From: an uncultured Acetobacteroides sp.
GTDB taxonomy: Bacteria; Bacteroidota; Bacteroidia; Bacteroidales; ZOR0009
Assembly: GCF_963678165.1 (NCBI RefSeq)
Contig: NZ_OY782755.1
Location: 1,984,001 to 2,048,000 of the forward strand
Length of the DNA: 64,000 nucleotides
Reading direction: 5' to 3'
Shown piece after piece: positions 7,350-63,874 of this stretch (the stretch's first letter is position 1; every line of letters starts with the position of its first letter). Position numbers and translations under genes: made by a program. The notes beneath the pieces were generated by a model that saw nothing but the letters and a program-made list of their open reading frames with translations, was not told the DNA's origin and did no database searches.

Positions 7350-7748
7350 GCATTAAGGTAATCGCTGTATGCTTTGGGATAGTAGCCATTAGCATTTAGA
7401 TAATAGGCTTATGCATTTGGATAATGAAGACTTGCTTTTAGATAATAGGCTTATGCATTTAGATAATGAAGACCTGCTTGGGGATAATAGCTTTATGCAT
7501 TTGGATAATGAAGATCAGCTCTGGGATAATAGCCTTATGCATTTGGATAATGAAGGGCTGCTTCGGGATAATAGACTTTTGCATTTAGATAATAGAGACC
7601 TGCTTGGGGATAATTGCTTTATGTATTTAGATAATGAAGACTTGCTCTGAGATAATAGCTTTATGCATTTAGATAATAAAGACCTGCTATAGGATAATAA
7701 CCTTATGCATTTAGATAATGAAGATATGCTTTAGGATAAAGAGCTTCC
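7350..7748. repeat. 21-nt tandem array A (about 19 units, GATAAT core)
   Basis: Nineteen successive 21-nt units without a single indel. Each carries a GATAAT-like core (16-17 exact), begins GC(A/T)T, and is otherwise variable. Two unit types alternate, one with 'GATAATGAAGAC' and one with 'GGGATAATAG..TTAT', giving a 42-nt higher-order period. The outer units are the most diverged (for example GGTAAT at 7350-7370 and GGATAA near 7735). It lies between the convergent gene ends at 7213 and 8005. Because 21 is a multiple of 3, one frame stays open for 79 codons (7411-7650) with a heptad-like peptide; I do not call this a gene. Confidence 0.95.
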
Positions 7749-7935
7749 GCTCTCCGCTATTATCTTACCCTGCCTCTACCTATTTCAGCATGGTGGAGTA
7801 GGGGATCGGCCGTGCACTCATATATTGGGGGTTGCTTCTTTGTGCACGCTATCTTCCCGTGCAATTTTGCTTATGTTCTCTTGCCAACGCCAGCCTTGCT
7901 GTCAGAGGCTGCATTTGCCAGCTGTACCCTGCCAA

Positions 7936-7979
7936 AACGGTTAAGGGAGCGGCAATGCTTTACCGCTCCCTTAACCGTT
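7936..7979. terminator. strong hairpin terminator (ferritin 3' side)
   Basis: A perfect 17-bp stem (AACGGTTAAGGGAGCGG and its complement) with a 10-nt loop, 25 nt past the ferritin stop. On the minus strand it is followed by TTTTGG. Confidence 0.7.
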
Positions 7980-8004
7980 GTTCTGTTGCGCATGGCACCT
8001 GCCG

Positions 8005-8487
8005 CTAGCGCTTTTTCAGCTCCTTGTCGATGTACACCAGCCCACCGCCGTCGCCAACCCGCTTCAGCTTGTCGATAATGGCTTGAGCGTTCTTCTCCTC
8101 CTCAACCTGCTCGTCAACGTACCACCTTAGAAGGTTTTGGGTTGCGTAGTCCTTCTCCAGAACGGCAATGTCCATTAGGTTGTGGATAAGGCTGGTCACC
8201 TTTAGCTCGTGCGCTAGTGCCTCTTCGAATGCGTCAAGCGGAGTTGCCCACGTTTGCGGAACCTCCTTAATGGCGTGAAGCCTAACCGTCCCCGACCTGT
8301 CGTTAATGTAGTCGAGGAACTTCAGCGCGTGCTCCGTCTCCTCCTTGTACTGCACCCTAAACCAGTGGGCAAACCCCTCAAACCCCTTATTCTCGAAATC
8401 GGCCGACATGGAAAGGTAAAGGAATGCCGACCAAAGTTCGGCATTGATTTGGTCGTTCAACGCATCTAACATTTTGCTGCTTATCAT
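8005..8487 (-). CDS. ftnA: non-haem ferritin
   Basis: A 160-aa four-helix ferritin. The start is set at 8487 ('MISSKMLDALNDQINAE') because the upstream extension to 8616 has no ferritin similarity. Ferroxidase ligands are visible: Glu17 in 'NAE', Glu50 and His53 in 'EETEH', and the helix 'VDEQVEEE' for the remaining site. No haem-binding methionine signature was noted. It oxidises Fe(II) and stores it as a mineral inside a 24-mer in the cytoplasm, protecting against iron/oxygen stress. It is monocistronic. No clear TAnnTTTG box was found immediately upstream. Confidence 0.95.
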   Translation of the reverse strand: MISSKMLDALNDQINAELWSAFLYLSMSADFENKGFEGFAHWFRVQYKEETEHALKFLDYINDRSGTVRLHAIKEVPQTWATPLDAFEEALAHELKVTSLIHNLMDIAVLEKDYATQNLLRWYVDEQVEEEKNAQAIIDKLKRVGDGGGLVYIDKELKKR

Positions 8488-8637
8488 AGTCGTAGAGTTT
8501 AATAGTAATACTACGTTTAACTCGCCTAAATGTTTATAAGAGCCGCTAGTAAGTCGATGAAGCACCTTCGTTGCCCAATTCAGATAGGTTGAAGCGATGT
8601 TGCGATATTTGTTCACAGCCTCTAGCGCGCAAAAGAA

Positions 8638-8663
8638 AAAGGGAAGATTCCCATCTTCCCTTT
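8638..8663. terminator. bidirectional hairpin terminator
   Basis: The stem AAAGGGAAGAT/ATCTTCCCTTT with a TCCC loop, 77 nt past the stop of the small gene at 8740-8931 (minus strand). Confidence 0.75.
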
Positions 8664-8739
8664 ACCAATTAAACAAACTGCTACAAAATTATATCAAACC
8701 AGTATTCATATTTATCCTTTCCTAAATCGGTTGATGCCG

Positions 8740-8931
8740 CTAGAGGTCTTCGAGCACTGCAAACTCGAACGATGCCTCCTCTTCCACATTAATAAGCCCG
8801 TATATCCATTGGGGTTCAAGCCTAGGTATAAGCTTCGAAAGGTTTGCCTGAAGATTGCCCAAGCCTAGCTGGCAATTCTTTTCGGCTATAGCCTCCATTA
8901 TTCTTGACGTTGTCGAATTGTTGCTCATCAT
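8740..8931 (-). CDS. small protein of unknown function (63 aa)
   Basis: Starts 'MMSNNSTTSRIMEAIAEKN'. It has no signal peptide, one amphipathic helix, and an acidic C-terminus ('NVEEEASFEFAVLEDL'). No homologue is recognised. It is called as a real gene because it is framed by a near-perfect promoter (9026-8996) with a leader of about 60 nt and a strong terminator (8663-8638). This gives a complete independent transcription unit of about 350 nt. It could also be an RNA gene whose transcript happens to hold this frame. Confidence 0.6.
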   Translation of the reverse strand: MMSNNSTTSRIMEAIAEKNCQLGLGNLQANLSKLIPRLEPQWIYGLINVEEEASFEFAVLEDL

Positions 8932-8995
8932 CTCGTTGTCTGTAGTTAGTTGTACGTAAGCCTTTTTGTTTGCCGATTTTGCATCTCGGGTTTGG

Positions 8996-9026
8996 CAAAA
9001 GTATCTGGAAAAACGAATCAGCCAAA
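8996..9026 (-). promoter_or_regulatory. promoter of the 63-aa gene
   Basis: On the minus strand: TTTG (9026-9023), a 19-nt spacer, TACTTTTG (9003-8996). Both boxes match the Bacteroidota consensus exactly, and this is the best promoter in the window. Predicted start near 8990. Confidence 0.75.
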
Positions 9027-9390
9027 ATAAAAATGTTAAATCAACCTTTTGCTAATCAATTTATTGTGTAGGGCGTTTTGATGTTTTAATATGAAGGCAA
9101 TACTTAGGTTAACATAATGAATTGTAATGTAATGTTGCCGATTGTACCTGTAATCTTCACTTTTATAACGATTTGTATCGATATGTTTACGATTTAAAGC
9201 TACTCCTGATGAAGCCTGCGCTAGGGTTTTACGGATAATGGACCTTGGCGTTAAATGTTTGTTGTGGCTGCTTAAGCTATTGGAGAAGGCGAATTGATTG
9301 GATGGGTGAATGAGTTTGCTGCCAATTTCCTTTTCCTATAAGATGAGTAGATAAATTGGTTAATTTAGAGGCTTTCATTAGAAATAAGCA
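9027..9390. other. intergenic region upstream of sbcD
   Basis: AT-rich, about 360 nt between divergent transcripts. No gene, repeat or clear TAnnTTTG box for sbcD was found. Confidence 0.4.
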
Positions 9391-10611
9391 ATGCGTATAC
9401 TCCATACATCCGACTGGCATTTGGGAAAGCGCCTCGACGACTTCTCTCGCTTGGACGAGCAGCGTGAGGTGCTTGACGAGATTGTAGAAATAGCCAACGA
9501 GCAAGACGTTGATGCCGTGCTCATAGCAGGCGACCTGTTTGATACCTACAATCCCCCTACCGAAGCGGTTGATCTCTTCTACCGATGCTTAAAGAGGCTA
9601 ACCAATAACGGTACCCGCCCTGTTATTGCCATTGCTGGTAATCACGATTCGCCCGATCGCATTGAGTCTCCCGATCCTTTGGCGCGCGAATGCGGCATTG
9701 TTTTTATCGGATATCCCAATACGGTTATTCCACTCTTCGAATTGGAGTCGGGATTTAAGGTGCTGCAGTCGGCAGAGGGATTTGTTGAGCTGCAGCTGCC
9801 CCGATGCAACGAGCCTCTTCGAATACTGCATACCGCTTACGCCAATGAGTTTCGGATGAAGACATATCTTGGAACGGAAAACAACGAGCAGCAGCTGCGC
9901 GATATGCTAGCCACAAGATGGGAGAATCAGGTAGCTGGCTATTGCGATAGTCTGGGATGCAATATTCTTGTAAGCCATCTCTTTTTTATAAAGGAGGGGG
10001 CGGATTTACCCGAAGAACCAGAGGATGAAAAGCCAATCCTGCACGTTGGAGGTGCGCAAGCCATCTTTACAGGAAACGTTCCAGAAGGAGTTCATTACGT
10101 TGCTCTTGGGCATCTACATCGCAAGCAGATTGTTGATAGCGCTCCTTGTCCGATTGTGTACTCTGGTAGCCCATTGTCATACTCCTTTGCAGAAGCTAAT
10201 CAAGGCAAGTACGTAATGATAGCTGACATGGAGGTTGGGCGAAACGTTGCTGTTAAGGAGATTGCGCTGGCTAAGGGTAAACGATTGCTTCGTTACAGGG
10301 CTGATGGTGTTGAAAAGGCTATTGAGTGGTTAAGAGATAATCCAGATGCACTTGTGGAACTTACGCTTGTATCCGACACCTACATTACGGCGCAGGAGCG
10401 AAAACAGCTAATCGAGGTTCATCCTAATATAATAAGTATAATACCCGATATAAAATCGAAGGAGTTGATAGCTTCGGACAGGAGTACGGCTGATCTTAGC
10501 AAGAATACCGAAGAGCTTTTTCGGGACTACTTTATGAAGGAGAAGGGGCAAGAGCCTAGCGACTCGTTGATGAGCTTATTTAAGGAAATGTTGGCAGAGG
10601 AGGAAGCGTAA
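9391..10611 (+). CDS. sbcD: exonuclease SbcCD, subunit D (Mre11-type nuclease)
   Basis: A 406-aa protein with all phosphoesterase motifs of SbcD/Mre11: 'TSDWHLG' (metal Asp and His), 'AGDLFD', 'AGNHDS', 'VALGHLHRKQ'. The C-terminal capping region (about 280-406) is usual for SbcD. With SbcC it forms a DNA-end and hairpin-processing nuclease complex that removes cruciform or hairpin structures and trims breaks. Its stop overlaps the sbcC start in TAATG (10609-10613), indicating translational coupling. The palindromic REP cluster directly downstream is the sort of hairpin-forming DNA this nuclease can act on, though that juxtaposition may be chance. Confidence 0.97.
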   Translation: MRILHTSDWHLGKRLDDFSRLDEQREVLDEIVEIANEQDVDAVLIAGDLFDTYNPPTEAVDLFYRCLKRLTNNGTRPVIAIAGNHDSPDRIESPDPLARECGIVFIGYPNTVIPLFELESGFKVLQSAEGFVELQLPRCNEPLRILHTAYANEFRMKTYLGTENNEQQLRDMLATRWENQVAGYCDSLGCNILVSHLFFIKEGADLPEEPEDEKPILHVGGAQAIFTGNVPEGVHYVALGHLHRKQIVDSAPCPIVYSGSPLSYSFAEANQGKYVMIADMEVGRNVAVKEIALAKGKRLLRYRADGVEKAIEWLRDNPDALVELTLVSDTYITAQERKQLIEVHPNIISIIPDIKSKELIASDRSTADLSKNTEELFRDYFMKEKGQEPSDSLMSLFKEMLAEEEA

Positions 10612-13600
10612 TGATACCAGTAAGACTAACCCTAGAGGGATTATATTCCTACCAGAAAAGGCAAACCATCGACTTTACAAGGTTAACTGCCGCCAATATT
10701 TTCGGAATTTTTGGTCAGGTGGGTAGCGGGAAGTCGTCTATCTTGGAAGCGATCAGCTATGCGATATATGGCGATACCGAGAGGCTAAATAGCAAGGAGG
10801 GTAGGGGCTATAACATGATGAACTTGAAGTCGGATAGCCTGCTTATCGAATTTGAGTTCGTCTCTGGAATCAACCATAAGAGCTATTTGGTTATTGTTTC
10901 GGCTCGACGTAATTCTAAGCGGTTCGAAGATGTAAAGACGATTGAACGTAAGGCTTTTGTTGATGATGGTGGTGACTGGAAGCCTGTAGAGTTGTCATCT
11001 TTAGAGGAGGCAATTGGATTAAGCTACGCCAACTTTAAGCGTACTATCATCATACCTCAAGGACGGTTTCAGGAGTTTTTGCAGCTCGATAAGAAAGAGC
11101 GTACCAACATGATGAAGGAGCTCTTTAACCTCGAGAAGTACGATCTCTTTAGGAAGGCTGCCTCGTTGGATAAGCGCAATAACGATAAGCGTCAGTTCCT
11201 GGAAGGGCAGCTGTCGTCGTTAGGTGATGTTAGCGCTGAGCAGATTGACCAATTAAAGGAGCTGCTAAGCCAATATCAGGATCTTGCTAAGGCGCTATCT
11301 GCCGAACTCGAGCAAAAGCGTAAAGAACTCGAGGTGTGGAAGAGGCTAAAGGAGCTAAACATCAAAAAGGAAAAGCTACTTGCCGACAGAAAGGAGCTAG
11401 AGGTGAAGACTGCGGCAATTAGCCGCTTGGAAGATCAGCTAAGGGGGTACGAGTATTGCCTAGTTCACTTTAAAGGGTTGATGGAGCAGGAGCAACAGGC
11501 TCAAAAGAGCATCAATCTGCTAAATGAAGCGCTTCGAATCGAAAAGCTGTCGCTAAAGAAGACGCTAGATGAGCTTGCCGATAAGCAGCAACAGCAGGTA
11601 ACCCTAAAAGCAGACTACGATCTGCGTGATCGGATTAATGCGGAGGCTGACGATCTCGACCGAATCGCAAAAGCAAAGGTGTTAATCGCTGAGATTGAGA
11701 ACTTGAATGTTAGAATTGCCAAAGGCGAGGAGGTAATTAAGGCTAATGAGGCTAAGGTAAAGGAGCTAAAGGATATTCAGGAGAAGCAAAGTGGTAATCT
11801 GAAGAACCTAAAGCAGCAGCTACCTGATGTTGCCTTACTATCGAGGGTGCGAGAGTGGTATACCTATAATAAATTGTTGAGCGCCCAGCTTGTTGAGGCT
11901 AAACATGAGCATGAAGCGGCCTTAAATGAAAAGAAGAACGCGGAGGGTGAACTTGTTTTGCTGCTCGATGGAAAGGAACTTAGCGTAGGCTTGCCGGTTG
12001 TTTCACCTTCTCAGGCGCAGGAGAAGATTCGTGAGGAGGTTGTTCGGTTAACCGATATCGTTAGGCAAAAGGATAAGGAGCTACAGCATCTGCTGGTTCA
12101 GCAAAAGCTGGGGCAGTATGCCGATGAGCTTCAAAGCGGTGAGCCTTGCCCTCTATGTGGTTCTACCCATCATCCGCAAATACTCAATATCGCCAATGTT
12201 GCTGAGGCAATCAGCTTAACCCGCAAGCAAAAGGAGAATGCCCAAGCCAGTATTGACCAGTGCAACGTGCTAGATAGGAAACTGGTTGAACTTGGTGCAA
12301 AGCTTAAAGGAATAAATGAAAAATGTGGTAAGGCTACCGAACGGGTGGCCAAACTGGAGGCTGATCTTAAGCAGCATCAGGATAAGTTTGAGTGGGAAGC
12401 GTATAAAACCGAGGAGTCTTTAAGTAAAGCCTTTGCCGTAGCCGATAAGCTGGGAAAGGATATCAAGGCGCTGGAAGACGCAATAGAAAAGGCATCGAAC
12501 GATCTTCAAGAAGAGGAGAAGAATAACGAAAAGTACCGAAAGGCAGTTGAGGCGTTTAAGCTCGAAATGGCTTCGAAGGAGGGGCAAAAGCAATCGCTGA
12601 TTGCCGGATTGCGCCATCTTCAGGTCGTTCAGTATGAGGGTAAGGCTCCAAAGGAGCTCGAAGATATGGCTATTGCTAAGCGCAACCATGTAAGCAGCGT
12701 TGTTGCTAAGTTTGACAGACTTTCTACCGAGATTGCCGATCTTCGTCAACTGGAGGGGAAGAGCAGCGGAAGCATTGCGGCAAATGAGGCTAACCTACAT
12801 AAGGAGCAGCAGAGCCTTGATTCAATTACCCAAAGCATAAGCCAAAAGCTGGAGGCTAACGGGCATCTATCGTTGGAGGAGGTGAAGCAAACGCTTGCCC
12901 TTGGCTTAGATGTTGACGGCGTTCGTAAGCAAATTGCCGACCATAATCAGGCAGTACAAACCGTTACGGCACAAGTTGCTGAGAATGAGAGTGAGTTTGC
13001 CGGTCGCACCTACAATGCCCAGGAGCATTTGGAGTTGGATGCTGCGGTTGTTGAGCTAGCCAATAGGGAAGGGGCTAACCGTAAGGATATTGGTAGTGTT
13101 GAGAACGAGATTGCCACGAAGAATGCCGCCCTAGAGCAGCAGGCGACCATCCGAAAGGAACTAGACATTGTGATAATGCGTGCATCGGAGCTCTCTACCT
13201 TAAAGAACATGCTCCAGGGGAATAAGTTTATCGACTTTATTAGCACTACCTACCTGCAAAACCTGTGCAGCGCTGCCAACGATCGATTCTACAAGATGAC
13301 ACGCCAACGGCTGAGCCTCGAATTGACCGAAGACAACAGTTTTCAGGTGCGCGACTACATGAATGGCGGCAAAACCCGAAGCGTTAAGACGCTATCGGGC
13401 GGGCAAACCTTTCAGGCTTCGCTGTCGTTGGCGTTGGCCTTGTCCGATAACATCCAACGGATGCAGAGTGCCGATCAAAACTTCTTCTTCCTCGATGAGG
13501 GCTTTGGCACTCTCGATAAAGATTCGCTCGGAATTGTATTCGATACCCTAAAATCCTTGCGGAAGGAGAACCGTATCGTTGGGGTAATATCGCATGTTGA

Positions 13601-13685: not shown

Positions 13686-13777
13686 ATGGCGTTCTATTAA
13701 AGGACTACAGGAGGAGGCAAAAATTCATTTCTACGGGGGATGAATTGATGTCTCTTCTTTGTTTTTGTAGTAATGTC

Positions 13778-14079
13778 ATCCCTTCGGGATTTTGGCGGTT
13801 ATTGGTGGTGGGATGGCGGAAGTTTTGATGTCACCCCTTCGGGGTTTTGGATGTATAGATGCTTCTTTTCTACAATAATACCATCCCTTCGGGGTTTTTG
13901 CAATTGTAGTTTTTGGTATGGTGATGGTTTTAATTTCACTCCTTCGGGGTTTGGTTAATGATGCTGGTTGTTTTCTACAATAATCTTATCCCTTCGGGAT
14001 TTTGGTGCTGGTGTAAGCCCGAAGGGCTGTCATTATTATAGAAATCAGTTCAATTATAGGATTAAAACCCCGAAGGGGT
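13778..14079. repeat. REP-like palindrome cluster, left side of the RAYT gene
   Basis: At least seven short palindromes with a TTCG or GAAG tetraloop: ATCCC-TTCG-GGAT (13778, 13988), ACCCC-TTCG-GGGT (13833 and variants at 13883 and 13938), AGCCC-GAAG-GGCT (14016) and ACCCC-GAAG-GGGT (14067). Shared flanks such as 'TTTCTACAATAAT' and 'TTTTGG' precede or follow them. Orientation inverts next to the transposase gene. This is the organisation of REP elements mobilised by REP-associated tyrosine transposases. Confidence 0.85.
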
Positions 14080-14086
14080 GGTATTG

Positions 14087-14548
14087 CTATTCTGTCGAAT
14101 TAAATAAGTATTGGGGATTATAGTCAATGGCGAATTTCTTTAAGAAATCTTCGTATTCTTCTTTAAATGTCTTTCTGTGATGATGTAGTTCTTGGTTCAT
14201 CACATAATTATAAACTTGCTCCAATTGTGAATGGCTATATGAAAAAGCACCGAATCCTTCTTGCCATGAAAACTTCCCCTTTACAAAACCTTTCTTGTTG
14301 ATGAAGTTTGAGGAGTTGTTCTTGATATCTCTTACTAAATCTGATATTGGCATTGATGGCTTTAGTCCTATAAGGATATGTATATGGTCAGGCATTCCGT
14401 TGACAATTATTGATTTTTGATCTTTGTTGGTAATTATTCCTGATATGTATCTGTAAAGTTCATCTTTCCACGTTTTACTAATAAGATTTTCGCGTCCTTT
14501 TACTGCGAAAATAATCTGAATGTAAATCTGCGTGAATGTTCCTGGCAT
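14087..14548 (-). CDS. REP-associated / IS200-like Y1 transposase
   Basis: A 153-aa HUH single-strand transposase. 'QIYIQIIFAVKGR' is the first strand, and 'PDHIHIL' gives the HUH metal ligands (His55, His57). 'GKFSWQEGFGAFSYS' follows. The catalytic tyrosine is in 'YNYVMNQE' (Tyr115 most likely). The protein is intact and full length for this family. It is embedded in REP-like palindromes on both sides rather than IS200 left and right ends, so it is better described as a RAYT, a domesticated relative that moves or processes REP hairpins. It lies 400 nt from sbcC. A decayed copy of its 3' end is found 950 nt away at 15032-15079. Confidence 0.88.
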   Translation of the reverse strand: MPGTFTQIYIQIIFAVKGRENLISKTWKDELYRYISGIITNKDQKSIIVNGMPDHIHILIGLKPSMPISDLVRDIKNNSSNFINKKGFVKGKFSWQEGFGAFSYSHSQLEQVYNYVMNQELHHHRKTFKEEYEDFLKKFAIDYNPQYLFNSTE

Positions 14549-14566
14549 GGCGGTAGCTTTAATTTC

Positions 14567-15023
14567 ACCCCTTCAGGGTTTGGTTAAACATGTTATTTGT
14601 TTTCTACAATAATCTCATCCCTTCGGGATTTTGATGGTTGTTTTTTCTGAAATGGTAGATGTAATAAGGCTATTCCTTAGCGATTTGTTTAAGGTAAGGG
14701 CTAATTTTTCTCAATGTTACTGTTGTATTAGATTTTTGGGGACTTATGAAGGTTGGGTGGTGATGGATTTTATTTCACCCCTTCGGGGTTTAGTATAAAA
14801 TGTTGTTTGTTTTCTACAATAATACCATCCCTTCGGGATTTTTGCGGTTGATGGTGCTGGTATGACGATGATTTTAATATTCTCTCTTTTGGCGGTGATT
14901 AATTATACGGGGTGTTTACTTCTATAGCATCATTTCTTCGGGATTTTGGTGCTGGTGTAAGCCTGAAGGGCTGGAATTATTGTAGAACGTGTATCAATTA
15001 TGGGAACTAAAACCCCGAAGGGG
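14567..15023. repeat. REP-like palindrome cluster, right side of the RAYT gene
   Basis: Further TTCG/GAAG-loop palindromes at 14567 (one mismatch), 14617, 14777, 14827, about 14935 (diverged), about 14963 (diverged) and 15011. They carry the same flanking words as the left cluster. The last one plus its downstream 50 nt repeats the arrangement at 14064-14120. No other gene lies in the 14549-15162 gap. Confidence 0.82.
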
Positions 15024-15031
15024 TGGTATTG

Positions 15032-15079: not shown

Positions 15080-15121
15080 TAATTTTCTTCTATTACTCGC
15101 TTCTCATTAAGTATGATAGTT

Positions 15122-15151
15122 GATAAAGCGCGGTATGTTTCGCGCTTTATC
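15122..15151 (-). terminator. terminator of the lysis pair
   Basis: The perfect 11-bp stem GATAAAGCGCG/CGCGCTTTATC with an 8-nt loop, 12 nt after the holin stop. Confidence 0.65.
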
Positions 15152-19409: not shown

Positions 19410-19661
19410 TATTGTATTTGTCATGACAATTACTGTATTTGTTGAAGCAGATACTGTATTCGTTAAAGCAAATACTGTATTCGTTAAAGCAAATACTGTA
19501 TTTGTTGAAGCAAATGCTGTATTCGTTAAAGCAAATGCTCTATTTGTTGAAGCATATGCTGTATTTGTTGAAGCATATGCTGTATTCGTTGAAGCAAATG
19601 CTGTATTCGTTGAAACAAATACTGTATTCGTTACAACATTTGCTGTATTTGCTTCAACTTT
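19410..19661. repeat. 21-nt tandem array B (12 units, TGTATTYGTT core)
   Basis: Twelve contiguous 21-nt units with no indel, consensus T(A/G)C-TGTATT(C/T)GTT-(A/G)AAGCAAA. The end units are the most degenerate; a further unit-like stretch (TGCTGCATTTTTCGG..., from about 19380) lies upstream out of phase by 9 nt. The array sits between the permease and clpP genes, both rightward. One frame stays open for 128 codons (19423-19809), encoding a V-F-V-(E/K)-A-N/Y-(T/A) heptad. A second frame is open for 82. Open frames follow automatically from a stop-free 21-nt unit, so no gene is called. Confidence 0.95.
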
Positions 19662-34733: not shown

Positions 34734-34756
34734 GGCTTAGCCTAGCATAATATTAG

Positions 34757-34793
34757 AAAAGGGAAGAACCGCATCGGGTTCTTCCCTTTTTTT
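34757..34793 (+). terminator. terminator of tryptophanase
   Basis: The stem AAAAGGGAAGAACC/GGTTCTTCCCTTTT with a short loop, followed by a T run. Confidence 0.85.
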
Positions 34794-34828
34794 ATGGTTG
34801 GCTTACTCCGTGGAATGGTTGTAGCGCC

Positions 34829-35163
34829 TACCCGGGATGTCGGGTAGAACTAATCGGAACCGAAATCGTCCGCCCGAGATGTCGGGCAGAGCTAATCGGA
34901 ACCGAAATCGTCCGCCCGAGATGTCGGGTAGAGCCAATCGGAACCGAAATCGTCCGTCCGAGATGTCGGGTAGAGCTAATCGGAACCGAAATCGTCCGCC
35001 CGAGATGTCGGGCAGAGCTAATCGGAACCGAAATCGTCCACCCGAGATGTCGGGTAGAGCCAATCGGAACCGAAATCGTCCGTCCGAGATGTCGGGTAGA
35101 GCTAATCGGAACCGAAATCGTCTACCCGAGATGTACGGAGGTCTAATCGGAACCCGAAACACC
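34829..35163. repeat. 42-nt (2 x 21) tandem array C, 8 units
   Basis: Eight units of exactly 42 nt, each divisible into 21 + 21. The first half holds the palindrome CCCGA-GATG-TCGGG; the second holds TCGG-AA-CCGA plus AAATCGTC. Units are far more alike than in the other arrays; variation is mainly C/T or G/A at four positions. The outer units are the most diverged. The array lies between the convergent ends of tryptophanase and the GH51 gene. Frames are open on both strands over most of it, as expected for a stop-free unit of 42. Confidence 0.96.
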
Positions 35164-35200
35164 TACCGTACTTGCCCGACGGAGGGTATTCATATACCGC

Positions 35201-35233
35201 AAAGGGGCTGCCTATAGCTTAGGCAACCCCTTT
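35201..35233 (-). terminator. terminator after GH51 gene
   Basis: AAAGGGG-(C)-TGCCTA pairs with TAGGCA-(A)-CCCCTTT, 37 nt beyond the GH51 stop on the minus strand. T-rich flank on one side. Confidence 0.6.
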
Positions 35234-35269
35234 GGTTTTATCTATCCTGCCGATGAGGGCAGCGTTGGA

Positions 35270-50557: not shown

Positions 50558-51019
50558 GAATGCTCCCCAACTGAGCCTGATTGCGTCATGGTCAAGTTCG
50601 ATTGCAGGTGCGTCAGATCCGTTTGCGGAGCATCCAAGCGCAATTGCGGAGGTGCTAATACCGATTGCGACACAGCTAAGCTCAATTGCGGAGGTGCCAA
50701 TGCCGATTGCGTTACTGCCAAGCCCGATTGCGGAGGTGCCAATGCCGATTGCGATACAGCCAAGCCCGATTGCGAAGGCGCCACATGTCATTGCGTCATG
50801 GTTAAACTCGATTGCAGGTGCGTCAAATTCGTTTGCGGAGCATCCAAGTGCAATTGCGGAGCAGCCAATGCCGATTGCGTTACCGCCAAGCTCGATTGCG
50901 AAGGTGTTACATGACATTGCGTCATAGTCAAGCACGATTGCGAAGGCGCCACATGTCATTGCTTTATGGTTAGGCGCGATTACGGTACCGCCAAGGTCGA
51001 TTGCGCGCTGCTCGGGGAA
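50558..51019. repeat. 21-nt tandem array D (22 units, ATTGCG core)
   Basis: Twenty-two units of exactly 21 nt. Each starts (G/A/C)ATTGCG, and most have GCCAA near position 14. Units 2-4 are near-copies of units 12-14, showing a ten-unit (210-nt) block duplication. The array occupies most of the gap between the GH43 start and the regulator's terminator. Long open frames exist on both strands (up to 154 codons, 50495-50959 minus), with 7-residue period peptides. These are not called as genes. One frame looks superficially like trimeric-autotransporter head repeats, most likely because both are short periodic sequences. Confidence 0.95.
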
Positions 51020-56234: not shown

Positions 56235-59200
56235 ATGGATCTAAGAAAAAAAACGTTGGTTCTTCTGGCCCTTCTAGCATTTTCTAGTCACGCGCTTTGG
56301 GCCGGGAATGAAGGAAGCAGTATTGCGAGTTCTGCAGTACAGCAAAAAAAGAGCAGTATCTCGGGTACTGTAAAAAATGAAAAGGGAGAAACTATTGTTG
56401 GTGTTAGTGTTTTGGTGAAAGGAACAGCTAACATGGGAACAGTAACAGATATTGATGGTCGTTTTACACTAAGTAACGTTCCTCAAAATGCTACGCTGGT
56501 TTTCTCTTTTGTGGGAATGAAAAAGCAGGAAGTTGCCGTTGATGGGAAAACAAACATAGCGGTGGTTCTTGAATCAAACGCTATCAGTATGGACGAACTG
56601 GTGGTTGTAGGTTTCGGTACACAGAAAAAGGTTAATCTTACCGGTGCTGTTGGTACTGTAGATAAGAAGGCGCTCGAAACGCGTCCTGTACAAAATGTTG
56701 CTCAGGCATTACAAGGCGTAGTTGCTGGTCTTAATATCAGCCAAAATTCGGGCTCTATGGAGTCGCGCCCTTCAATTAACATCCGTGGTATTGCAACAAT
56801 AGGCTCTGGTTCTAGTGGCTCACCTCTTATTCTGATTGATGGAACAGAGGGAGATATTAATGCCATTAACCCACAAGATATTGAGAATATATCGGTGCTT
56901 AAGGATGCTGGTGCTGCTGCCGTATACGGGTCTCGTGCTCCTTTTGGGGTGATTTTGATCACCACTAAAAAAGGGAAAGCAGGTAAGGCTGTTGTAAACT
57001 ATAACAACTCGTTTAAGAGAACTTCTGCATTGCTTCTGCCTCATATGATGGACTCCTATACTTTTGCTCTATATTTTAACGAGGCCAATAAGAATAGTGG
57101 TGCTGGTCCATTTTTTAGTGATGAGTGGCTAACCCGTATAAAAGATTTCCAGACAGGGAAGTTGACCAATCCAAAGAATGGTTTGCCTATGACCACAGTT
57201 CCTAATGGAAGCAATTGGGCCGATTATGGTGGAGGTAACGATAATATTGACTGGTATAAGGCGGTATACAAAAACTCCGCTCCATCTCAGGAGCATAGCG
57301 TGAGCGTATCAGGTGGTAATGAGACTACCAACTACTATATTTCTGGTAACTTTTTAGATCAAGATGGTCTTGTGCGTTTTGGAGGAGATAAATTCAATCG
57401 TTACGCTGCTACTGCTAAGATCAACACCAAAATCTCTGATAAGGTTTCGTTGGGATATAATGGACGATGGATTAGAGAAGACTACGAGCGCCCATCAAGC
57501 CTTACCAATAGTTTGAACCAAGATTTGGCTCGTCAAGGTTGGCCTACTCTACCTTTATACGATCCCAATGGCTACCTTTTCTCGTCTCCTTCTCCTGCTC
57601 TTGCGCTAAGAGACGGAGGTAGAGATAAAAAGCAAACTGACTGGCTTTATCAGCAGTTACAACTTATTGTTGAGCCTGTAAAAGGATGGAGAATAACTGG
57701 AGAACTAAACTACAAGACGATTGACGAATTTAGACATTGGGATTCACAGAAGACATATAACCATAATGTTAATGGTGACCCTTACGTTTACAATTCATAT
57801 ACCAATGTTCATGAAGGTGCTGCCAGAACAAATTTCTTTAACCCTAATATCTTTTCGGAATATTCGAAGTCAATTAATGCCAATAACTTTAAGGTAATGG
57901 TTGGTTTCCAGGCTGAACAGTATAAAGACCGTAATGTTTCTGGCGATAGAAATGGTATTATTACCGCAGCACTTCCTACATTAAACACTACTTCTGGAAC
58001 TGATGCCAATGGTAAAATAGTTTCTCCTAGTGTTTCTGGAGGATACGGTAACTGGTCAACGGCAGGTTTCTTTGGGCGTTTTAATTACGACTATGATGGT
58101 CGTTACCTATTGGAGGCAAACTTCAGGTATGATGGTACCTCTCGATTCCTTGCGGATAAAAGGTGGAATGCATTTCCTTCTGTTTCTGTAGGTTGGAATG
58201 TTTCAAAGGAGGCGTTTTGGAAACCAATAGAAGAATATGTGAATAGTTTAAAACTAAGGGCTTCGTATGGTTCTTTAGGTAATCAAAATACTAAAAATGA
58301 TAACGATTATAGATTAGCCTTTTATCCTGCAATTCAGACCATGCCAATAGGAACATCAAATGGTTCTTGGTTGGTAAACGGAGTACAACCAAATACAGCT
58401 TCTGCTCCATACCTGGTTTCTTCATCACAAACTTGGGAAAAAATTAGAACTTGGGATGTAGGTGCTGATTTAGGAATGTTTAATAATAAGCTTACTGCAA
58501 CGTTCGACTACTATATTCGATACACCAATGATATGTTGGCTCCTGGTGTTGAGTTGCCAGTGACCCTTGGAACTGATGTTCCAAAGACTAACAACACAGA
58601 TTTAAAAACATACGGTTTTGAGTTGTCGCTTAATTGGCAAGACAGGCTAGCTAATGGGCTTGGCTATGGTATAAAAATTTCTGTTGCAGACTCTAGAACT
58701 AAAATTACAAAGTATCCTAACCCAACAGGACGCCTAGATCAAACTATTGCTGGTAGAATGTATGGCGAAATCTGGGGATATGATACAAAAGGAATCGCGA
58801 AGTCTGACGAAGAGATGAACGCGCATCTTGCAAGTTTACCTAATGGAGGTCAAAATGCTGTTGGTAGTAACTGGAAAGCAGGAGATATCATGTACAATGA
58901 CTTAAATAATGATGGTAAGATTGATAAAGGAGCTAATACCATATCTGACCATGGAGATTTAAAGGTTGTTGGAAATAGTACACCTCGCTTCCCATTCTCT
59001 GTTGATTTGTCTGCTGATTGGAAAGGTTTCGACTTTAGAGCATTTTTCCAAGGTATCATGAAGAGAGATTACTACCAAGATAGCTACTTCTTCTGGGGTG
59101 CATGGAAATGGGGTGTTTGGTGGTCGACCGGATTAGATGAGCATAAGGACTACTTCCGTGCTGATGCCAACAATCCTCTTGGACAAAATCTAAACTCTTA

Positions 59201-59492
59201 CTATCCTCGTCCTCTTTTTGGAGATGGCAAGAACATGGAAACACAAACACGCTATATGCAAAATGCGGCATATGTTCGTCTAAAAAATCTTCAACTTGGT
59301 TACACTCTACCTGCCGAATTAACCAAAAAGGTTGGTGTTTCGAAATTAAGGGTATTTGTTTCGGGCGAAAACCTTTGGACTTATACAAAGATGGCCAAGA
59401 TGTTTGACCCTGAAACCATTGATGGTGGATATGGTGGTAATGTTTACCCATTGTTCAAGGTTTATTCTTGCGGTCTTAGCGTAACCCTTTAA
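56235..59492 (+). CDS. SusC-family TonB-dependent outer-membrane transporter
   Basis: A 1085-aa protein. Signal peptide (about 1-23), carboxypeptidase-D-like N-terminal extension ('GTVKNEKGETIVGVSVLVKG...DIDGRFTLSNVP', about 43-115), the TonB box region 'DELVVVGFGTQKK', plug ('NIRGIATIGSGSSGSPLILIDG', 'VLKDAGAAAVYGSRAPFGVILITTKKGK'), then the barrel to a C-terminal aromatic strand. Imports oligosaccharides across the outer membrane with SusD as lid. Followed by susD after 12 nt. Composition is AT-richer than the glycosidase genes. Confidence 0.97.
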   Translation: MDLRKKTLVLLALLAFSSHALWAGNEGSSIASSAVQQKKSSISGTVKNEKGETIVGVSVLVKGTANMGTVTDIDGRFTLSNVPQNATLVFSFVGMKKQEVAVDGKTNIAVVLESNAISMDELVVVGFGTQKKVNLTGAVGTVDKKALETRPVQNVAQALQGVVAGLNISQNSGSMESRPSINIRGIATIGSGSSGSPLILIDGTEGDINAINPQDIENISVLKDAGAAAVYGSRAPFGVILITTKKGKAGKAVVNYNNSFKRTSALLLPHMMDSYTFALYFNEANKNSGAGPFFSDEWLTRIKDFQTGKLTNPKNGLPMTTVPNGSNWADYGGGNDNIDWYKAVYKNSAPSQEHSVSVSGGNETTNYYISGNFLDQDGLVRFGGDKFNRYAATAKINTKISDKVSLGYNGRWIREDYERPSSLTNSLNQDLARQGWPTLPLYDPNGYLFSSPSPALALRDGGRDKKQTDWLYQQLQLIVEPVKGWRITGELNYKTIDEFRHWDSQKTYNHNVNGDPYVYNSYTNVHEGAARTNFFNPNIFSEYSKSINANNFKVMVGFQAEQYKDRNVSGDRNGIITAALPTLNTTSGTDANGKIVSPSVSGGYGNWSTAGFFGRFNYDYDGRYLLEANFRYDGTSRFLADKRWNAFPSVSVGWNVSKEAFWKPIEEYVNSLKLRASYGSLGNQNTKNDNDYRLAFYPAIQTMPIGTSNGSWLVNGVQPNTASAPYLVSSSQTWEKIRTWDVGADLGMFNNKLTATFDYYIRYTNDMLAPGVELPVTLGTDVPKTNNTDLKTYGFELSLNWQDRLANGLGYGIKISVADSRTKITKYPNPTGRLDQTIAGRMYGEIWGYDTKGIAKSDEEMNAHLASLPNGGQNAVGSNWKAGDIMYNDLNNDGKIDKGANTISDHGDLKVVGNSTPRFPFSVDLSADWKGFDFRAFFQGIMKRDYYQDSYFFWGAWKWGVWWSTGLDEHKDYFRADANNPLGQNLNSYYPRPLFGDGKNMETQTRYMQNAAYVRLKNLQLGYTLPAELTKKVGVSKLRVFVSGENLWTYTKMAKMFDPETIDGGYGGNVYPLFKVYSCGLSVTL

Positions 59493-59504
59493 AATTAAAC
59501 AACT

Positions 59505-61496
59505 ATGAGAAGCAAAATAATATTACTACTATTCGCAGGAGCATTGGGTTTTTTAAGTTCTTGTGATGATTATCTTGATGAAACACCAAAGTCTTACTTA
59601 ACGCCCGAACAGTACTTAACTGACGAATCTCACTTAGCGGCATATTCTATTGCACGTTATGGTGTATTCCCAACCCACGGAAGTTGGTCATTTGGTACTT
59701 TTGGTATTGATGCCGGAACCGACAATATGGCTTCTGATGGCTACGATAATAAGTATGTTCCAGGACAGTCTAAAGTAGGTCAGAATGGGGGAGATTGGTC
59801 TTTTGGCGATATCTACCAGTGTAACTATTTTTTAAACAAGGTTGTTCCTCGTCTAAAGGCTAATACTATTACGGGTAATATCGATAATATTAAGCATTAC
59901 ATAGGCGAAATGTACATGATTAGAGCTTATGTGTACTTTACGAAACTTCAGGCTCTTGGTGATTTTCCTATTATTAAGACAGCTCTTCCTGATAATCAGG
60001 AAATATTGGCTGCAGCTAGTAAGAGAGCACCTAGAAATGAGGTTGCACGATTTATTCTTCAGGATCTCGATTCTGCCATTACATTAATGAAAAATGTTGC
60101 TCCAGATGGAAAGAAAAATCGTTTGTCGAAGTATTGCGCATTACTACTTAAATCGCGTGTTGCACTATACGAGGGTACTTGGTTGAAGTATTTCAAGGGA
60201 ACAGCATTTGTTCCAAATGGATCAAACTGGCCTGGCAAATCGAAGGACTACAATGCAAATTACCAGTTCACTAGTGGAAGTATCGATAAGGAAATTGAAT
60301 TCTTCTTGGGAGAAGCAGTTGCTTCATCTAAAGAGGTTGCAGATGCTATCCCACTTGTTAATAATAATATGGTACTTCAACAGAGCACATCAGATGCGGT
60401 TAACCCTTACTTCTCAATGTTTAGTGATGTTGATATGTCAGGATACAGCGAAGTACTATTATGGCGCAAGTACGACAAGGGATTGGGCGTAACTCACAAT
60501 GTTCCAGTTTACGCACAATCCGGAAATCATGCGATTGGACTTACTCGTGGTATGGTCGAAGGTTTCTTAATGGCCAACGGTTTACCAATTTATGCTGCTG
60601 GCTCAGGATATGCAGGTGATGATCAAATCTCGGATGTTCGTAAAAATAGAGACGGTCGTCTATGGTTATTCTTGAAGGAACCTGGACAAAAGAATGTGCT
60701 ATATCCAAGTTCAGTTGGAGACCATGCAACTCCAGTAGAACTTACCCCTTTAATCACAATTTCTGATGTTGAAAGAAAGTATACTACAGGTTATGCTATT
60801 CGAAAAGGATTAAACTACGATGCGGCTCAGTGTGGTAATGGTCAAGGTTATACTGGTGCTATTGTGTTTAGAGCTGTAGAGGCTTACCTAAACTACATGG
60901 AGGCTGACTATGAACTAAATGGAAGGTTGAGTGATATTTCTAAAGGCTATTGGAAAGCGATTAGAAACAGAGCAGGAGTTGATCCTGACTTTGATAAGAC
61001 TATTGCTGCTACAGATCTTTCTAAGGAGGCTGCTAACGATTGGGGCGTATACTCTGCAGGTCAAATGGTAGATAAGACGTTGTACAATATTCGTCGTGAG
61101 CGTCGCTGCGAGTTAATGGCTGAAGGTTTACGCTTTATGGATCTTAAGCGTTGGAGAGCAATGGATCAAATGATTTCAACTCCCTACCATATCGAAGGAT
61201 TTAAGCTATGGGGTGGTACCATCCAAACTTGGTACAACGCAAGCGATCTTAAGTATGGGATTGGTGATGCTAGTAATGTTTCAGCACCTTCATTAAGTGC
61301 ATATCTACGTCCTTATGAGAAGACACCTACATCTCTTGCTTATAATGGATATAGATGGGCTATGGCGCATTACTTAAGCCCTATTGCTGCTCAACACTTC
61401 TTAATTACCTCTAAGGATGGCAAGGATGCATCAACCTCGCCTATTTACCAAAATCCAGGTTGGTCTACCACTCCTAATACGGCTCCTGTTCAATAG
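59505..61496 (+). CDS. SusD/RagB-family glycan-binding lipoprotein
   Basis: A 663-aa lipoprotein, lipobox 'LGFLSSCDDYLDETP' (Cys20 anchor). The long TPR-like helical scaffold holds the usual 'YMIRAYVYFTKLQALGDFPII' block and a C-terminal 'RRERRCELMAEGLRFMDLKRWR' that is nearly universal in SusD. Lies on the cell surface over the SusC pore and binds the glycan. On the longer side for the family (many are 500-600). Confidence 0.96.
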   Translation: MRSKIILLLFAGALGFLSSCDDYLDETPKSYLTPEQYLTDESHLAAYSIARYGVFPTHGSWSFGTFGIDAGTDNMASDGYDNKYVPGQSKVGQNGGDWSFGDIYQCNYFLNKVVPRLKANTITGNIDNIKHYIGEMYMIRAYVYFTKLQALGDFPIIKTALPDNQEILAAASKRAPRNEVARFILQDLDSAITLMKNVAPDGKKNRLSKYCALLLKSRVALYEGTWLKYFKGTAFVPNGSNWPGKSKDYNANYQFTSGSIDKEIEFFLGEAVASSKEVADAIPLVNNNMVLQQSTSDAVNPYFSMFSDVDMSGYSEVLLWRKYDKGLGVTHNVPVYAQSGNHAIGLTRGMVEGFLMANGLPIYAAGSGYAGDDQISDVRKNRDGRLWLFLKEPGQKNVLYPSSVGDHATPVELTPLITISDVERKYTTGYAIRKGLNYDAAQCGNGQGYTGAIVFRAVEAYLNYMEADYELNGRLSDISKGYWKAIRNRAGVDPDFDKTIAATDLSKEAANDWGVYSAGQMVDKTLYNIRRERRCELMAEGLRFMDLKRWRAMDQMISTPYHIEGFKLWGGTIQTWYNASDLKYGIGDASNVSAPSLSAYLRPYEKTPTSLAYNGYRWAMAHYLSPIAAQHFLITSKDGKDASTSPIYQNPGWSTTPNTAPVQ

Positions 61497-61537
61497 TATT
61501 AATTACTGTAGAAAAGATTGTCTGTACAGATAAGTAT

Positions 61538-61573
61538 ATACCACCTTGGTTTAATACCAAGGTGGTATTTTTC
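61538..61573 (+). terminator. terminator after SusD
   Basis: A perfect 13-bp stem (ATACCACCTTGGT and complement) with a 5-nt loop and TTTTT tail. Confidence 0.85.
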
Positions 61574-61708
61574 TATTGATTGATGATGCATCATTTCTAG
61601 AAAATGAGCAAATTGTACGGTAAACAATTTGTTTGATTAGGAGCATTGGACTAGTAGCATATTGATGCACGATGCTTGAAATATGGTTGAATTAAATAAT
61701 AGCGAACA

Positions 61709-62851
61709 ATGAAAAAACTTTTTTTTGTGCTAATGGCTGCATTGGCACTGGGGGCTTGCAGCAAAAATGCAGGTTCAGGTGGTAAGGAGCTTCTTGCTGA
61801 AAGTAGCTTCGATACTACCATGAATGGTAAAAAGGTCGCGCTTTATATGCTGACCAATAAGAATGGTATGGCTATTCAGATTACCAACTATGGTGCACGA
61901 ATTGTAAGCCTGTGGGTGCCTAGCAAAGGTGGCGAGTTTAAGGATGTGGCATGGGGATATAGCTCCATTAAAAGCTATCTTAATGCTACTGATAATTATG
62001 CTGGACCTATTGTAGGACGCTATGGCAACAGAATTGCAAAGGGTAAGTTTACCCTCGATGGTAAGGAGTATACCCTTACGCTAAACGATCATGGGAATCA
62101 CCTACACGGAGGCTCGAATGGATTTTGGAAGCGAGTTTGGGATGTTGATACCGTTGTAAGTAGGGGAGAAAACCAGTACATCACCCTTTCGTACCTATCT
62201 GCTGATGGCGAAGAAGGCTATCCTGGTAATTTAAAGATCAAGGTAACCTACACGTTAAGCGAAGGTAATGAACTTAAGATCCAGTATGCAGCAACAACGG
62301 ATAAGCCTACTGTTGTTAATCCAACGAGTCACGTTTACTTCAACCTTCACGGGACTTCAGCCAAATCGACAAATTCGCATGTGATGCAGCTGCTTGCCGA
62401 CAGCTACACGCTTACCGATTCGTTGCTTATTCCAACTGGTGAAATATCGTCGGTAGAAAATACCCCACTTGATTTTAGAAAACCGACTGCCATTGGCGAT
62501 AGAATCAACAACGATTTTGTAGCGCTTAAAAACGGGAAGGGATACGACCACAACTGGGTTCTAGCCAAAAAGGGTAAGGGCGTGGAGCTGGCTGCCGTTG
62601 TTTTTGAGCCAGAGACAGGTATAGAGATGTCGGTATCTACCGATCAGCCAGGAATTCAATTCTATAGTGGTAACTTTATGGATGGAGTAGATACAGGCAA
62701 GTATGGTCAAAAGCATGGTTACCGTTCGGGAATTGCCTTAGAAACACAAAAGTTCCCTGATGCGCCAAATCATTCGAGCTTTCCATCTACGGTTCTAAAA
62801 CCAGGGGAGACCTATTCGCAAACGAGTGTTTACAGCTTTAAGGTGAAGTAG
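61709..62851 (+). CDS. galM: aldose 1-epimerase (galactose mutarotase), lipoprotein
   Basis: A 380-aa protein. Lipobox 'LALGAC' (Cys17). Mutarotase motifs: 'TNYGARIVSLWVPSKGG', 'GRYGNRIAKGKF', 'LNDHGNHLHGG', 'NPTSHVYFNLHG', and 'GIALETQKFPDAPNH' with the catalytic Glu. Interconverts alpha and beta sugar anomers. The lipid anchor places it in the envelope instead of the cytoplasm, fitting a role just after glycosidase release and before the symporter. Separated from susD by a terminator, so it may have its own promoter. Confidence 0.94.
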   Translation: MKKLFFVLMAALALGACSKNAGSGGKELLAESSFDTTMNGKKVALYMLTNKNGMAIQITNYGARIVSLWVPSKGGEFKDVAWGYSSIKSYLNATDNYAGPIVGRYGNRIAKGKFTLDGKEYTLTLNDHGNHLHGGSNGFWKRVWDVDTVVSRGENQYITLSYLSADGEEGYPGNLKIKVTYTLSEGNELKIQYAATTDKPTVVNPTSHVYFNLHGTSAKSTNSHVMQLLADSYTLTDSLLIPTGEISSVENTPLDFRKPTAIGDRINNDFVALKNGKGYDHNWVLAKKGKGVELAAVVFEPETGIEMSVSTDQPGIQFYSGNFMDGVDTGKYGQKHGYRSGIALETQKFPDAPNHSSFPSTVLKPGETYSQTSVYSFKVK

Positions 62852-62876
62852 CAACGTTTCGTTTGATCAAAAATAG

Positions 62877-62905
62877 AAGAGGGCTCGTAAGAGTCCTCTT
62901 TTTTT
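62877..62905 (+). terminator. terminator of galM
   Basis: AAGAGGGCTC/GAGTCCTCTT (one G-U) with a short loop and a T run, 26 nt past the stop. Confidence 0.8.
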
Positions 62906-63559
62906 GACCTAATCGGAGCTGCCTTATGGAGTTCGGACAACCGCACTTTAAAGTAGCATAACACGGAGGCTCTGATACCCAGCGCTCACAGGGCGTAATC
63001 ATTTCTAGCGTTGATCCTTTACGATCGGAGAATACAGCGTGAAGCCTGTGGCTGCGAGCGACAAAGGTGCAAGGCACTTTCCCCTTTTGCGCTGTGGCTT
63101 TTACCAAAAGTATTTTACGGCTTATCCTGCCTAGAAAACGGGCAAGGTAACGTTGTCATAGCAGCGATTTTTTATCCAGCCTCCAGCTTGCGATGGGCAA
63201 ATTCTGAAATTGCTCTGTGCTACCCTGTGCCTCTGTATCCCTGTGATTTTAAAGAAAATCTTAAATGCGGTTGCTCTAGGTAAAGCAGCCCTGCAATTTA
63301 TTGGGTAATTATCAAATAAATAGTTGCATTTACCAACTAAATAACCAATAGAATTAAATCAACAATTTGTAGCAAATTAGCCATTAGCAGTGTACCATTT
63401 CTATAACACTACATTGCACTATGTGAATGTAGTTTGCACTCTTTGACACTGTAGCCTTGGTAGAAGTGGTGCTATCTGTCATTTGAGGTAAATATACGTG
63501 CTAATGTCTGATTTACATGCTTTGCAAGATTAGGCCTTGAATTAACATTCTGTAAACTT
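62906..63559. other. non-coding region before array E
   Basis: About 650 nt. Two overlapping frames of about 90 codons exist but have no promoter, no domain and rare-codon content, so they are not called. AT-rich from about 63290 onward. Confidence 0.5.
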
Positions 63560-63874
63560 TGCTTCATTTTGTATTTAAAATGCTTCATCTTTGATACAAG
63601 ATGTTCCATCTTTAATACAAAATGCTTCATCTTTGATTCAATATGCTTCATCTTTAATACAATATACTTCATCTTTAATACAAAATGCTCCATATTTGAT
63701 TCAAGATGATCCATCTTTAATACAAAATGAAGCATATTTTATGGCAAATAGTTAAATACAGTATTATTTCACATTGTCTTTAATGCAAAATGCTCCATCT
63801 TAGACCCGAAAAAAGGCATTTTTAATACAAAATGCTTCATTTTGGATCAAAGATGGAGCATCGGCGATAGCAAT
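63560..63874. repeat. 21-nt tandem array E (15 units, TGCTTCAT core)
   Basis: Fifteen units in strict 21-nt phase. Intact units follow T(G/A)(C/T)T(T/C)CATCTTT(A/G)AT(A/T)CAA-purine-rich. Units 9-11 (63728-63790) have largely lost the consensus yet keep the period exactly. The minus frame reads K-M-K-H-x-x-x heptads, open for 87 codons (63472-63735); not called. The array is followed by unrelated sequence to the window edge. It lies over 650 nt from the galM terminator. Confidence 0.92.

What the first reader, a model, noticed from the sequence alone, without database searches (positions are those of the whole stretch)
7350..63874. Five unrelated intergenic arrays that share an exact 21-nt period
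Arrays A (7350-7748), B (19410-19661), C (34829-35163, 42 = 2 x 21), D (50558-51019) and E (63560-63874) have different unit sequences but an identical period, almost no insertions or deletions, decayed edges, and strictly intergenic placement. Their mid-points are 12-16 kb apart. Ordinary minisatellites would not be expected to keep one period in five independent sequences. 21 bp is two turns of B-DNA, so each unit presents its core on the same helix face, as needed by a DNA-phasing or nucleoid protein; 21 nt is also seven codons. Four of the five arrays carry one TGC step per unit (A, B, D, E). I know of no described repeat class with this behaviour. Only five examples are available here, so the even spacing may be chance.
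Basis: partly seen in the sequence, partly recalled or inferred. Interest (0 to 1): 0.88.

Follow-up and report, generated by a model that had tools for sequence, protein, structure and literature searches.

The report
Bacterial satellites of fixed repeat length
This bacterium carries repeat arrays between its genes that differ in sequence but nearly always repeat every 21-22 or 41-44 letters, a puzzling kind of bacterial satellite DNA that has been described before and still has no proven function.

Summary
The arrays are real. In 1.104 Mb sampled from the 4.30 Mb genome (26%), 72 of 73 tandem arrays of at least 90 bp have period 21, 22, 41, 42, 43, 44 or 63, in 48 sequence families: about 65 per Mb. 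'Exactly 21' is too strict: array C is a true 42-nt unit, and 24 of 61 periods are not divisible by 3, so the ruler is about two or four DNA turns, not codons. Arrays lie between genes in every gene orientation. Twenty other genomes of the order gave 2 arrays in 257 kb, periods 23 and 85. Of 14 arrays whose gap is anchored on both sides in a congener, 5 have an array there, in the same period class. I found no strand-specific RNA signature, shared mobile-element flank or 10.5-bp AT phasing. Subirana and Messeguer described this class (20-23 and 52 nt, some 40-41; PMC8161180), and Porphyromonas gingivalis has 22-, 23- and 41-nt arrays (PMC4596501). I read it as DNA-level satellites whose duplication step is length-locked. 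The ruler is unknown.

The parts
7392..7739 (.). Array A, 42-nt unit made of two similar 21-nt halves (GATAAT..TGC); one other related place found in the genome, 3483013-3483272
   Evidence: convergent gap; no array in the corresponding G002 region, where only the right-hand gene is anchored
19426..19649 (.). Array B, 21-nt unit GCAAATGCTGTATTCGTTGAA
   Evidence: G002 has a 21/42-nt array with no detectable unit similarity downstream of the orthologous antiporter gene, with another gene between and only the left flank anchored
34831..35159 (.). Array C, 42-nt unit without 21-nt sub-repeat, inverted repeat CCCGA-gatg-TCGGG; four other related places in the genome
   Evidence: pairing kept through two-sided changes across the family; absent from the G002 region, left flank anchored only
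50619..50966 (.). Array D, 42/21-nt unit (CCAATGCCGATTGCG...), the lowest copy-to-copy identity of the five
   Evidence: family with L016:18720 and L072:14612
63560..63729 (.). Array E, 21-nt unit TGCTTCATCTTTAATACAAAA
63816..63862 (.). Inverted copies of array E sequence beyond the main array

Best explanation
The five arrays belong to a genome-wide class of non-coding satellite DNA whose unit length is locked to about two or four turns of the DNA helix (20.5-22 bp or its double), while unit sequence is almost free. Shown in the sample: the period ladder, the density, intergenic placement without orientation bias, near restriction to this genus among the genomes sampled, frequent presence/absence differences between congeners, and family members at different loci that share only the array. 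Inferred: arrays are born and extended by a duplication step acting on duplex DNA that measures about two helical turns, grow further by in-register unequal exchange (higher-order periods 63, 84, 105, 126), and are sometimes copied to other loci by recombination. The likely ruler is a sequence-tolerant DNA-bound protein or a repair or replication complex that occupies two turns, with a weak preference for TGC and, in a subset, for dyad symmetry. A cell function is not needed to explain the data; if there is one, it works in bulk (chromosome organisation), because single loci are mostly not conserved.
For: 72 of 73 arrays in 1.104 Mb at 21/22/41-44/63 nt, including those with 0.9 or more self-identity, so a ruler at birth is more likely than selection removing other periods afterwards. 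Congener G002: 10 of 11 arrays in 220 kb fit; G001: 5 of 6 in 164 kb, one of these five by TRF period only, with weak autocorrelation. Outside detected arrays, intergenic lags 21, 42 and 63 stand out (z 9-10; lag 6 is higher at 12, other multiples of three 4-6). Gap types follow gap length: co-directional 34, convergent 11, divergent 11, edge 5, against 92, 38 and 32 kb. Stem mismatches in 45 arrays show no strand bias (G-T 52, A-C 76; larger-class sum 94 against 89.8 expected). Of 14 arrays with both flanks anchored in G002, 5 have an array in the gap in the same period class, 2 of them with no detectable unit similarity. In family C, L091-L093 match window C at 82-88%, while the orthologous pair L093/L101, with flanks 89-91% identical, has a changed stem. 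Members at non-orthologous loci share no flanks.
Against: No ruler protein or enzyme was identified, and no birth event was seen. The TGC preference (P=0.0002), the dyad excess (9 of 48 families, Fisher P 0.0008) and the mild even spacing (P about 0.03) hint at selection or a binding protein rather than a purely mutational cause. Homogenisation in family C is not complete: a fifth own locus (L094/L030) matches window C at only 70% and matches three G002 arrays better (76-80%). One array in the sample (228 nt, L072) and single arrays in G002 (98 nt) and G001 (14 nt) are off the ladder.
Confidence: 0.45

Rival explanations
1. Selected protein-binding arrays: a nucleoid or chromosome-organising protein polymerises on DNA with one protomer or dimer per two turns; arrays of any sequence with the right spacing are favoured and kept as a bulk feature.
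For: Period constant while sequence varies. TGC in 42 of 48 families and a dyad excess in a subset. In family C pairing is kept through two-sided changes (93% of cells paired, covariation 0.364 against 0.127 shuffled, 0 of 500). Spacing somewhat more even than random. Proposed in PMC8161180.
Against: No 10.5-bp AT phasing. 9 of 14 arrays with both flanks anchored lack a clear array in the G002 gap, one of the nine being a borderline remnant, and 5 of 14 is no more than chance occupation of gaps would give (P=0.19). Dyads are not significant in 39 of 48 families, and the half-unit dyad spacing is not significant once families are collapsed (5 of 20, P=0.09). No candidate protein.
Confidence: 0.3
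2. RNA-level function: the arrays are transcribed into strings of hairpins that act as sponges or small RNAs.
For: Some arrays fold well (L016:3317, DNA parameters, z -5.8; window C and B about -1.9). Array transcription in Bacillus coagulans is reported (PMC8161180; PMC8625621 abstract).
Against: Window arrays A, D and E fold no better than shuffles (z +0.85, +2.7, +0.2). No strand-specific wobble signature. Divergent gaps are used as often as their length predicts. No Rfam match in the window.
Confidence: 0.08
3. Arrays are the inner part of mobile elements (MITEs like P. gingivalis BrickBuilt/PgRS, or REP elements moved by RAYT transposases).
For: P. gingivalis has MITEs with 23- and 41-nt arrays (PMC4596501). 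Families occur at several loci. Seven Y1_Tnp matches in the genome, six over the cut-off, one in the window.
Against: In the three families compared, members share the array but no leader or tail; similarity of 60 nt or more ends within about 70 bases of the array except at two orthologous pairs. No inverted repeats of 14 nt or more flank arrays A-D other than single hairpins and a palindrome at B's edge; for E 5 of 11 pairs were shown, all inside the repeats. Shorter ends were not excluded. Congener G001 has arrays but no Y1_Tnp match. 33 of 48 families are singletons in the sample.
Confidence: 0.07
4. Protein-coding heptad repeats (7 codons = 21 nt).
For: Three gene calls lie mostly in arrays (L016, L022, L080); the L016 array reads as repeated [KR]L-E-FDV.
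Against: 24 of 61 arrays have periods not divisible by 3, and 10 of the 37 with divisible periods have all six frames stopped. Five array ORFs gave no Pfam match except a 9-residue match to a 15-position integrin-tail model in the array C ORF, which I take as chance.
Confidence: 0.03

Closest known systems
Constant-size, variable-sequence bacterial tandem repeats of Subirana and Messeguer (PMC8161180; their earlier J Bacteriol 2020 paper is not held and is recalled only)
   Same: Unit 20-23 nt with some doubled forms near 40-41, non-coding, many species-specific families per genome, a short characteristic signal, scattered among unrelated bacteria
   Different: Here a Bacteroidota genome at about 65 arrays per Mb (their Bacillus Table 1 lists at most 103 repeats in a genome, with other search settings); units assigned 41-44 nt dominate (56 of 72); no 52-nt class in the sample; copying or homogenisation of arrays between loci is indicated
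BrickBuilt (23-nt) and MITE464/PgRS (41-nt) arrays of Porphyromonas gingivalis (PMC4596501)
   Same: Arrays of 22, 23 and 41 nt, the 23 and 41 unrelated to each other in sequence, BrickBuilt always intergenic
   Different: Those carry flanking segments with terminal inverted repeats like those of IS5-family elements; no such shared flanks were found here
BIME/REP arrays of enterobacteria (recalled, no call)
   Same: Intergenic, palindromic, dispersed
   Different: REPs share one sequence and sit mainly at 3' ends; here 48 sequence families, dyads in a subset and no orientation bias

Membership tests
Constant-size bacterial satellites (20-23 nt and doubled) | Repeat length confined to 20-23 nt or its double | tested here: met
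   72 of 73 arrays in 26% of the genome, one of the 72 at 63 nt
Constant-size bacterial satellites (20-23 nt and doubled) | Several unrelated sequence families in one genome | tested here: met
   48 blastn families among 72 arrays, 33 singletons
Constant-size bacterial satellites (20-23 nt and doubled) | Non-coding | tested here: met
   0 of 61 arrays inside a retained gene call; three ORF calls lying more than half in arrays were dropped beforehand, one of them a candidate heptad gene
Constant-size bacterial satellites (20-23 nt and doubled) | Species-specific, only partly conserved between close genomes | tested here: met
   5 of 14 gaps anchored on both sides keep an array in the congener
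Constant-size bacterial satellites (20-23 nt and doubled) | Short characteristic sequence shared by most arrays of a genome | tested here: inconclusive
   TGC/GCA in 42 of 48 families against 31.4 expected, but only three bases; the most enriched 6-mer is in 8 of 48
MITE with internal minisatellite (BrickBuilt type) | Shared leader and tail with terminal inverted repeats around the array | tested here: not met
   In three families compared, members at non-orthologous loci share the array only; ends shorter than 14 nt not tested
REP/RAYT elements | A Y1 (RAYT) transposase in the genome | tested here: not met
   As a general requirement: G001 has arrays but 0 PF01797 matches. Of 16 order genomes with matches that were sampled, 1 had an array (G020, 23 nt, 90 bp), though stretches were short
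Nucleoid-protein phasing array | One protein bound to arrays of unrelated sequence | not testable with these tools
   Needs pull-down, ChIP or DAP-seq; an indirect proxy, 10.5-bp AT phasing, was not seen

The most novel reading that the evidence does not exclude
A dedicated length-measuring duplication system exists in this genus: an enzyme or DNA-bound complex that repeatedly duplicates any intergenic DNA in steps of two helical turns and homogenises the product, writing and rewriting satellites at some 280 sites per genome (extrapolated), so that orthologous gaps can hold unrelated arrays of the same period.
Probability: 0.15. Interest if true: 0.9.

Novelty: new member of a known kind. Interest (0 to 1): 0.55.

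Why it matters
A period fixed at about two DNA turns in otherwise unconstrained sequence implies an unidentified physical ruler. This genus has such arrays at high density, has congeners close enough to compare gap by gap, and shows presence/absence differences, copying between loci and stem replacement. That makes it a good system for the open question of what fixes the length of these bacterial satellites and whether they do anything for the cell.

Tried and rejected
Strict 21-nt period and seven-codon cause: rejected (22, 41, 43 and 44 nt periods).

Phased A-tract curvature: AT power at 10.5 bp is the lowest of seven harmonics over 82 arrays; purine power at 10.5 bp ranks a little above average (3.40 against 3), which I did not pursue.

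One dyad every 20.5-22 bp in all arrays: looked strong by eye and with per-copy scoring (14 of 40 arrays within 1.5 nt of half a unit, about 4.7 expected). It fell to 5 of 20 (P=0.09) when each family counted once against matched intergenic DNA, and a fully dyad-symmetric unit has two axes half a unit apart by geometry. Kept only as a subset property.

RNA wobble signature: none. RAYT and MITE origins: see membership tests. A target-site duplication at a gap that is full here and nearly empty in G002 (L020:18923-19548): none seen by eye in the alignment.

Gap comparison corrected on re-checking: one search listed 19 own arrays and 8 G002 counterparts. One search shows that for L067:18822 the related G002 array lies beyond the next gene, not in the same gap, so I dropped it; A, B, C and L033:635 have only one flank anchored (B and L033:635 with an array on the G002 side, A and C without). 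The count with both flanks anchored is 5 of 14, with L073:7134 borderline. The chance figure P=0.046 used the uncorrected 8 of 19; the corrected one is P=0.19. The odds of the explanations were not changed by this.

Papers: searches. Searches returned nothing. PMC8161180: abstract, introduction, results part 1 of 2, discussion, tables. PMC6749651: abstract and one section. PMC8625621: abstract and outline. PMC4596501: abstract, passages, section 7 part 1, section 8. Other listed papers: listing only. The J Bacteriol 2020 paper is not held; what I say of it is recalled or as cited in PMC8161180.
Full report
Observation. Tandem Repeats Finder finds all five arrays. The window is 1984001-2048000 of a 4,298,710-bp single-contig genome. 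The named relatives found for its SbcC protein are Bacteroidota at 32-38% identity (13 loci). B and E have a 21-nt unit, A and D a 42-nt unit of two similar halves, and C a 42-nt unit whose halves are unrelated (lag-21 identity 0.23).

Genome-wide scan. With one threshold for all periods (clusters of at least 90 bp, best TRF score at least 100, periods up to 500), 72 of 73 arrays have period 21 (13), 22 (2), 41 (16), 42 (33), 43 (5), 44 (2) or 63 (1) (periods by autocorrelation, TRF periods agree or are multiples). The exception is a 228-nt repeat at L072:1887, set aside for low autocorrelation. Density is about 65 per Mb, which extrapolates to about 280 per genome. DNA between genes but outside the detected arrays still shows lags 21, 42 and 63 at 9-10 standard errors above the median; lag 6 is higher (12) and other multiples of three are raised by 4-6, so part of this may be missed coding DNA.

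Taxonomic range. Congener G002 (SbcC 93% identical) has 11 arrays in 220 kb, 10 of them on the ladder, the other of period 98. Congener G001 has 6 in 164 kb, 5 on the ladder (one of these, L064:8650, by TRF period only), the other of period 14. Twenty other genomes of the order gave 2 arrays in 257 kb, periods 23 and 85. Thirteen named Bacteroidota loci gave 2 in 213 kb (TRF periods 92/192 and 202). The G002 stretches included 100 kb of contig 7 chosen as orthologous to the window.

Placement. Of 61 own arrays in the first 864 kb, none lies inside a retained gene call of a simple hexamer-based caller. Gap types are co-directional 34, convergent 11, divergent 11 and edge of stretch 5, against 92, 38 and 32 kb of gaps of 300 bp or more. 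Three ORF calls lying more than half in arrays were dropped before this count. In a contiguous 404 kb, 21 of 93 gaps of 300 bp or more hold an array, all 21 arrays have period 21, 41, 42 or 62-63, and spacing is slightly more even than chance (CV 0.67 against 0.95, P=0.029); arrays elsewhere can be close neighbours (L069, L073).

Coding. 24 of 61 periods are not multiples of three, and 10 of the 37 that are have stops in all six frames. One array reads as a heptad protein (L016:11862-12269) without a Pfam match. Coding cannot be the general cause.

Sequence content. 72 arrays fall into 48 families, 33 of them singletons. TGC/GCA is in 42 of 48 families against 31.4 expected (P=0.0002). Short inverted repeats exceed matched intergenic DNA in 9 of 48 families at p<0.05 (Fisher 0.0008), 8 of the 9 with 41-43-nt units. 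An earlier test with shuffled units as null gave 10 of 31 arrays. In family C, over 11 units picked by hand, the stem is paired in 93% of cells with three pairs changed on both sides; covariation is 0.364 against 0.127 in shuffles, but sliding by -3 also gives 0.293. Stem mismatches over 45 arrays are G-T 52 and A-C 76, with no more per-array imbalance than chance. AT power at 10.5 bp is not raised.

Turnover. I compared own arrays with the corresponding G002 gaps (homology; gaps; anchors re-checked). Fourteen have both flanks anchored. Five of them have an array in the G002 gap in the same period class (L016:3317, L016:11860, L016:18720, L073:11846, L067:14932; local self-identity 0.58-0.87, shuffled 95% limit 0.43), one is borderline (L073:7134, 0.48) and eight have none. 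Units are clearly related in two of the five, marginally in L016:3317 (P=0.08), where one stem is replaced by another at the same place, and not detectably in L016:18720 and L073:11846. Five of 14 is what chance occupation of gaps at 23% could give (P=0.19), so loci as such are not conserved beyond inheritance. Of four arrays with one flank anchored, B and L033:635 have an unrelated array of the same period class on the G002 side, A and C none. For L067:18822 a related 42-nt array lies beyond the next gene in G002. L093 and L101 are further orthologous loci of family C, with flanks 89-91% identical and a changed stem, while L091-L093 match window C at 82-88%. A fifth own locus, L094, matches C at only 70% and is nearer to the G002 arrays (76-80%). 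So arrays appear to be copied or homogenised between some loci of one genome. In three families, members at non-orthologous loci share no flanks, unlike MITEs.

Mechanism. What needs explaining is length without sequence. Selection alone should leave some young arrays of other lengths in view, and none was seen among the least diverged arrays of the sample. I therefore favour a ruler acting when units are duplicated, with later growth in register and copying between loci. A DNA-bound complex covering two turns is the simplest ruler that ignores reading frame. This step is inferred, and the selected nucleoid-protein model is not far behind. No enzyme or protein is proposed.

Prior art. PMC8161180 describes tandem repeats of constant size (20-21 nt and 52 nt, with a few of 40-41) and variable sequence in Bacillus, says 20-23-nt repeats occur in individual species of many bacterial groups, notes that the length equals two DNA turns, and suggests a nucleoid protein or small RNAs. 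PMC4596501 reports 22-, 23- and 41-nt tandem repeats in Porphyromonas gingivalis, some inside MITEs. The finding is therefore a new, dense member of a known and unexplained class.

Noticed in passing
window 14087-14548 (-): RAYT-like Y1 transposase (PF01797, E 5.9e-26), one of seven Y1_Tnp matches in the genome, six of them over the family cut-off.
   Followed up: partly
L016:11862-12269 (+), L080:12243-12704 (-): A 21-nt array family that stays open as a heptad-repeat ORF ([KR]L-E-FDV in L016) and scores as coding by hexamer usage; in the G002 orthologue (L095) one frame on each strand is open across the array. Possibly an emerging gene.
   Followed up: partly
L067:8950-9080, 11290-11400, 14796-14909: Short dispersed repeats with many matching places in congener G002, apparently distinct from the tandem arrays.
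   Followed up: no
L023:15067-15185, L025:2925-2965, L031:3653-3710, L032:5386-5414: Scattered short 7/14/21-nt repeats built on TTAGAC/TAGATAT-like heptamers, below the array threshold.
   Followed up: no
window 34752-34795 and 35200-35234: Array C lies between two terminator-like hairpins of the convergent flanking genes.
   Followed up: no
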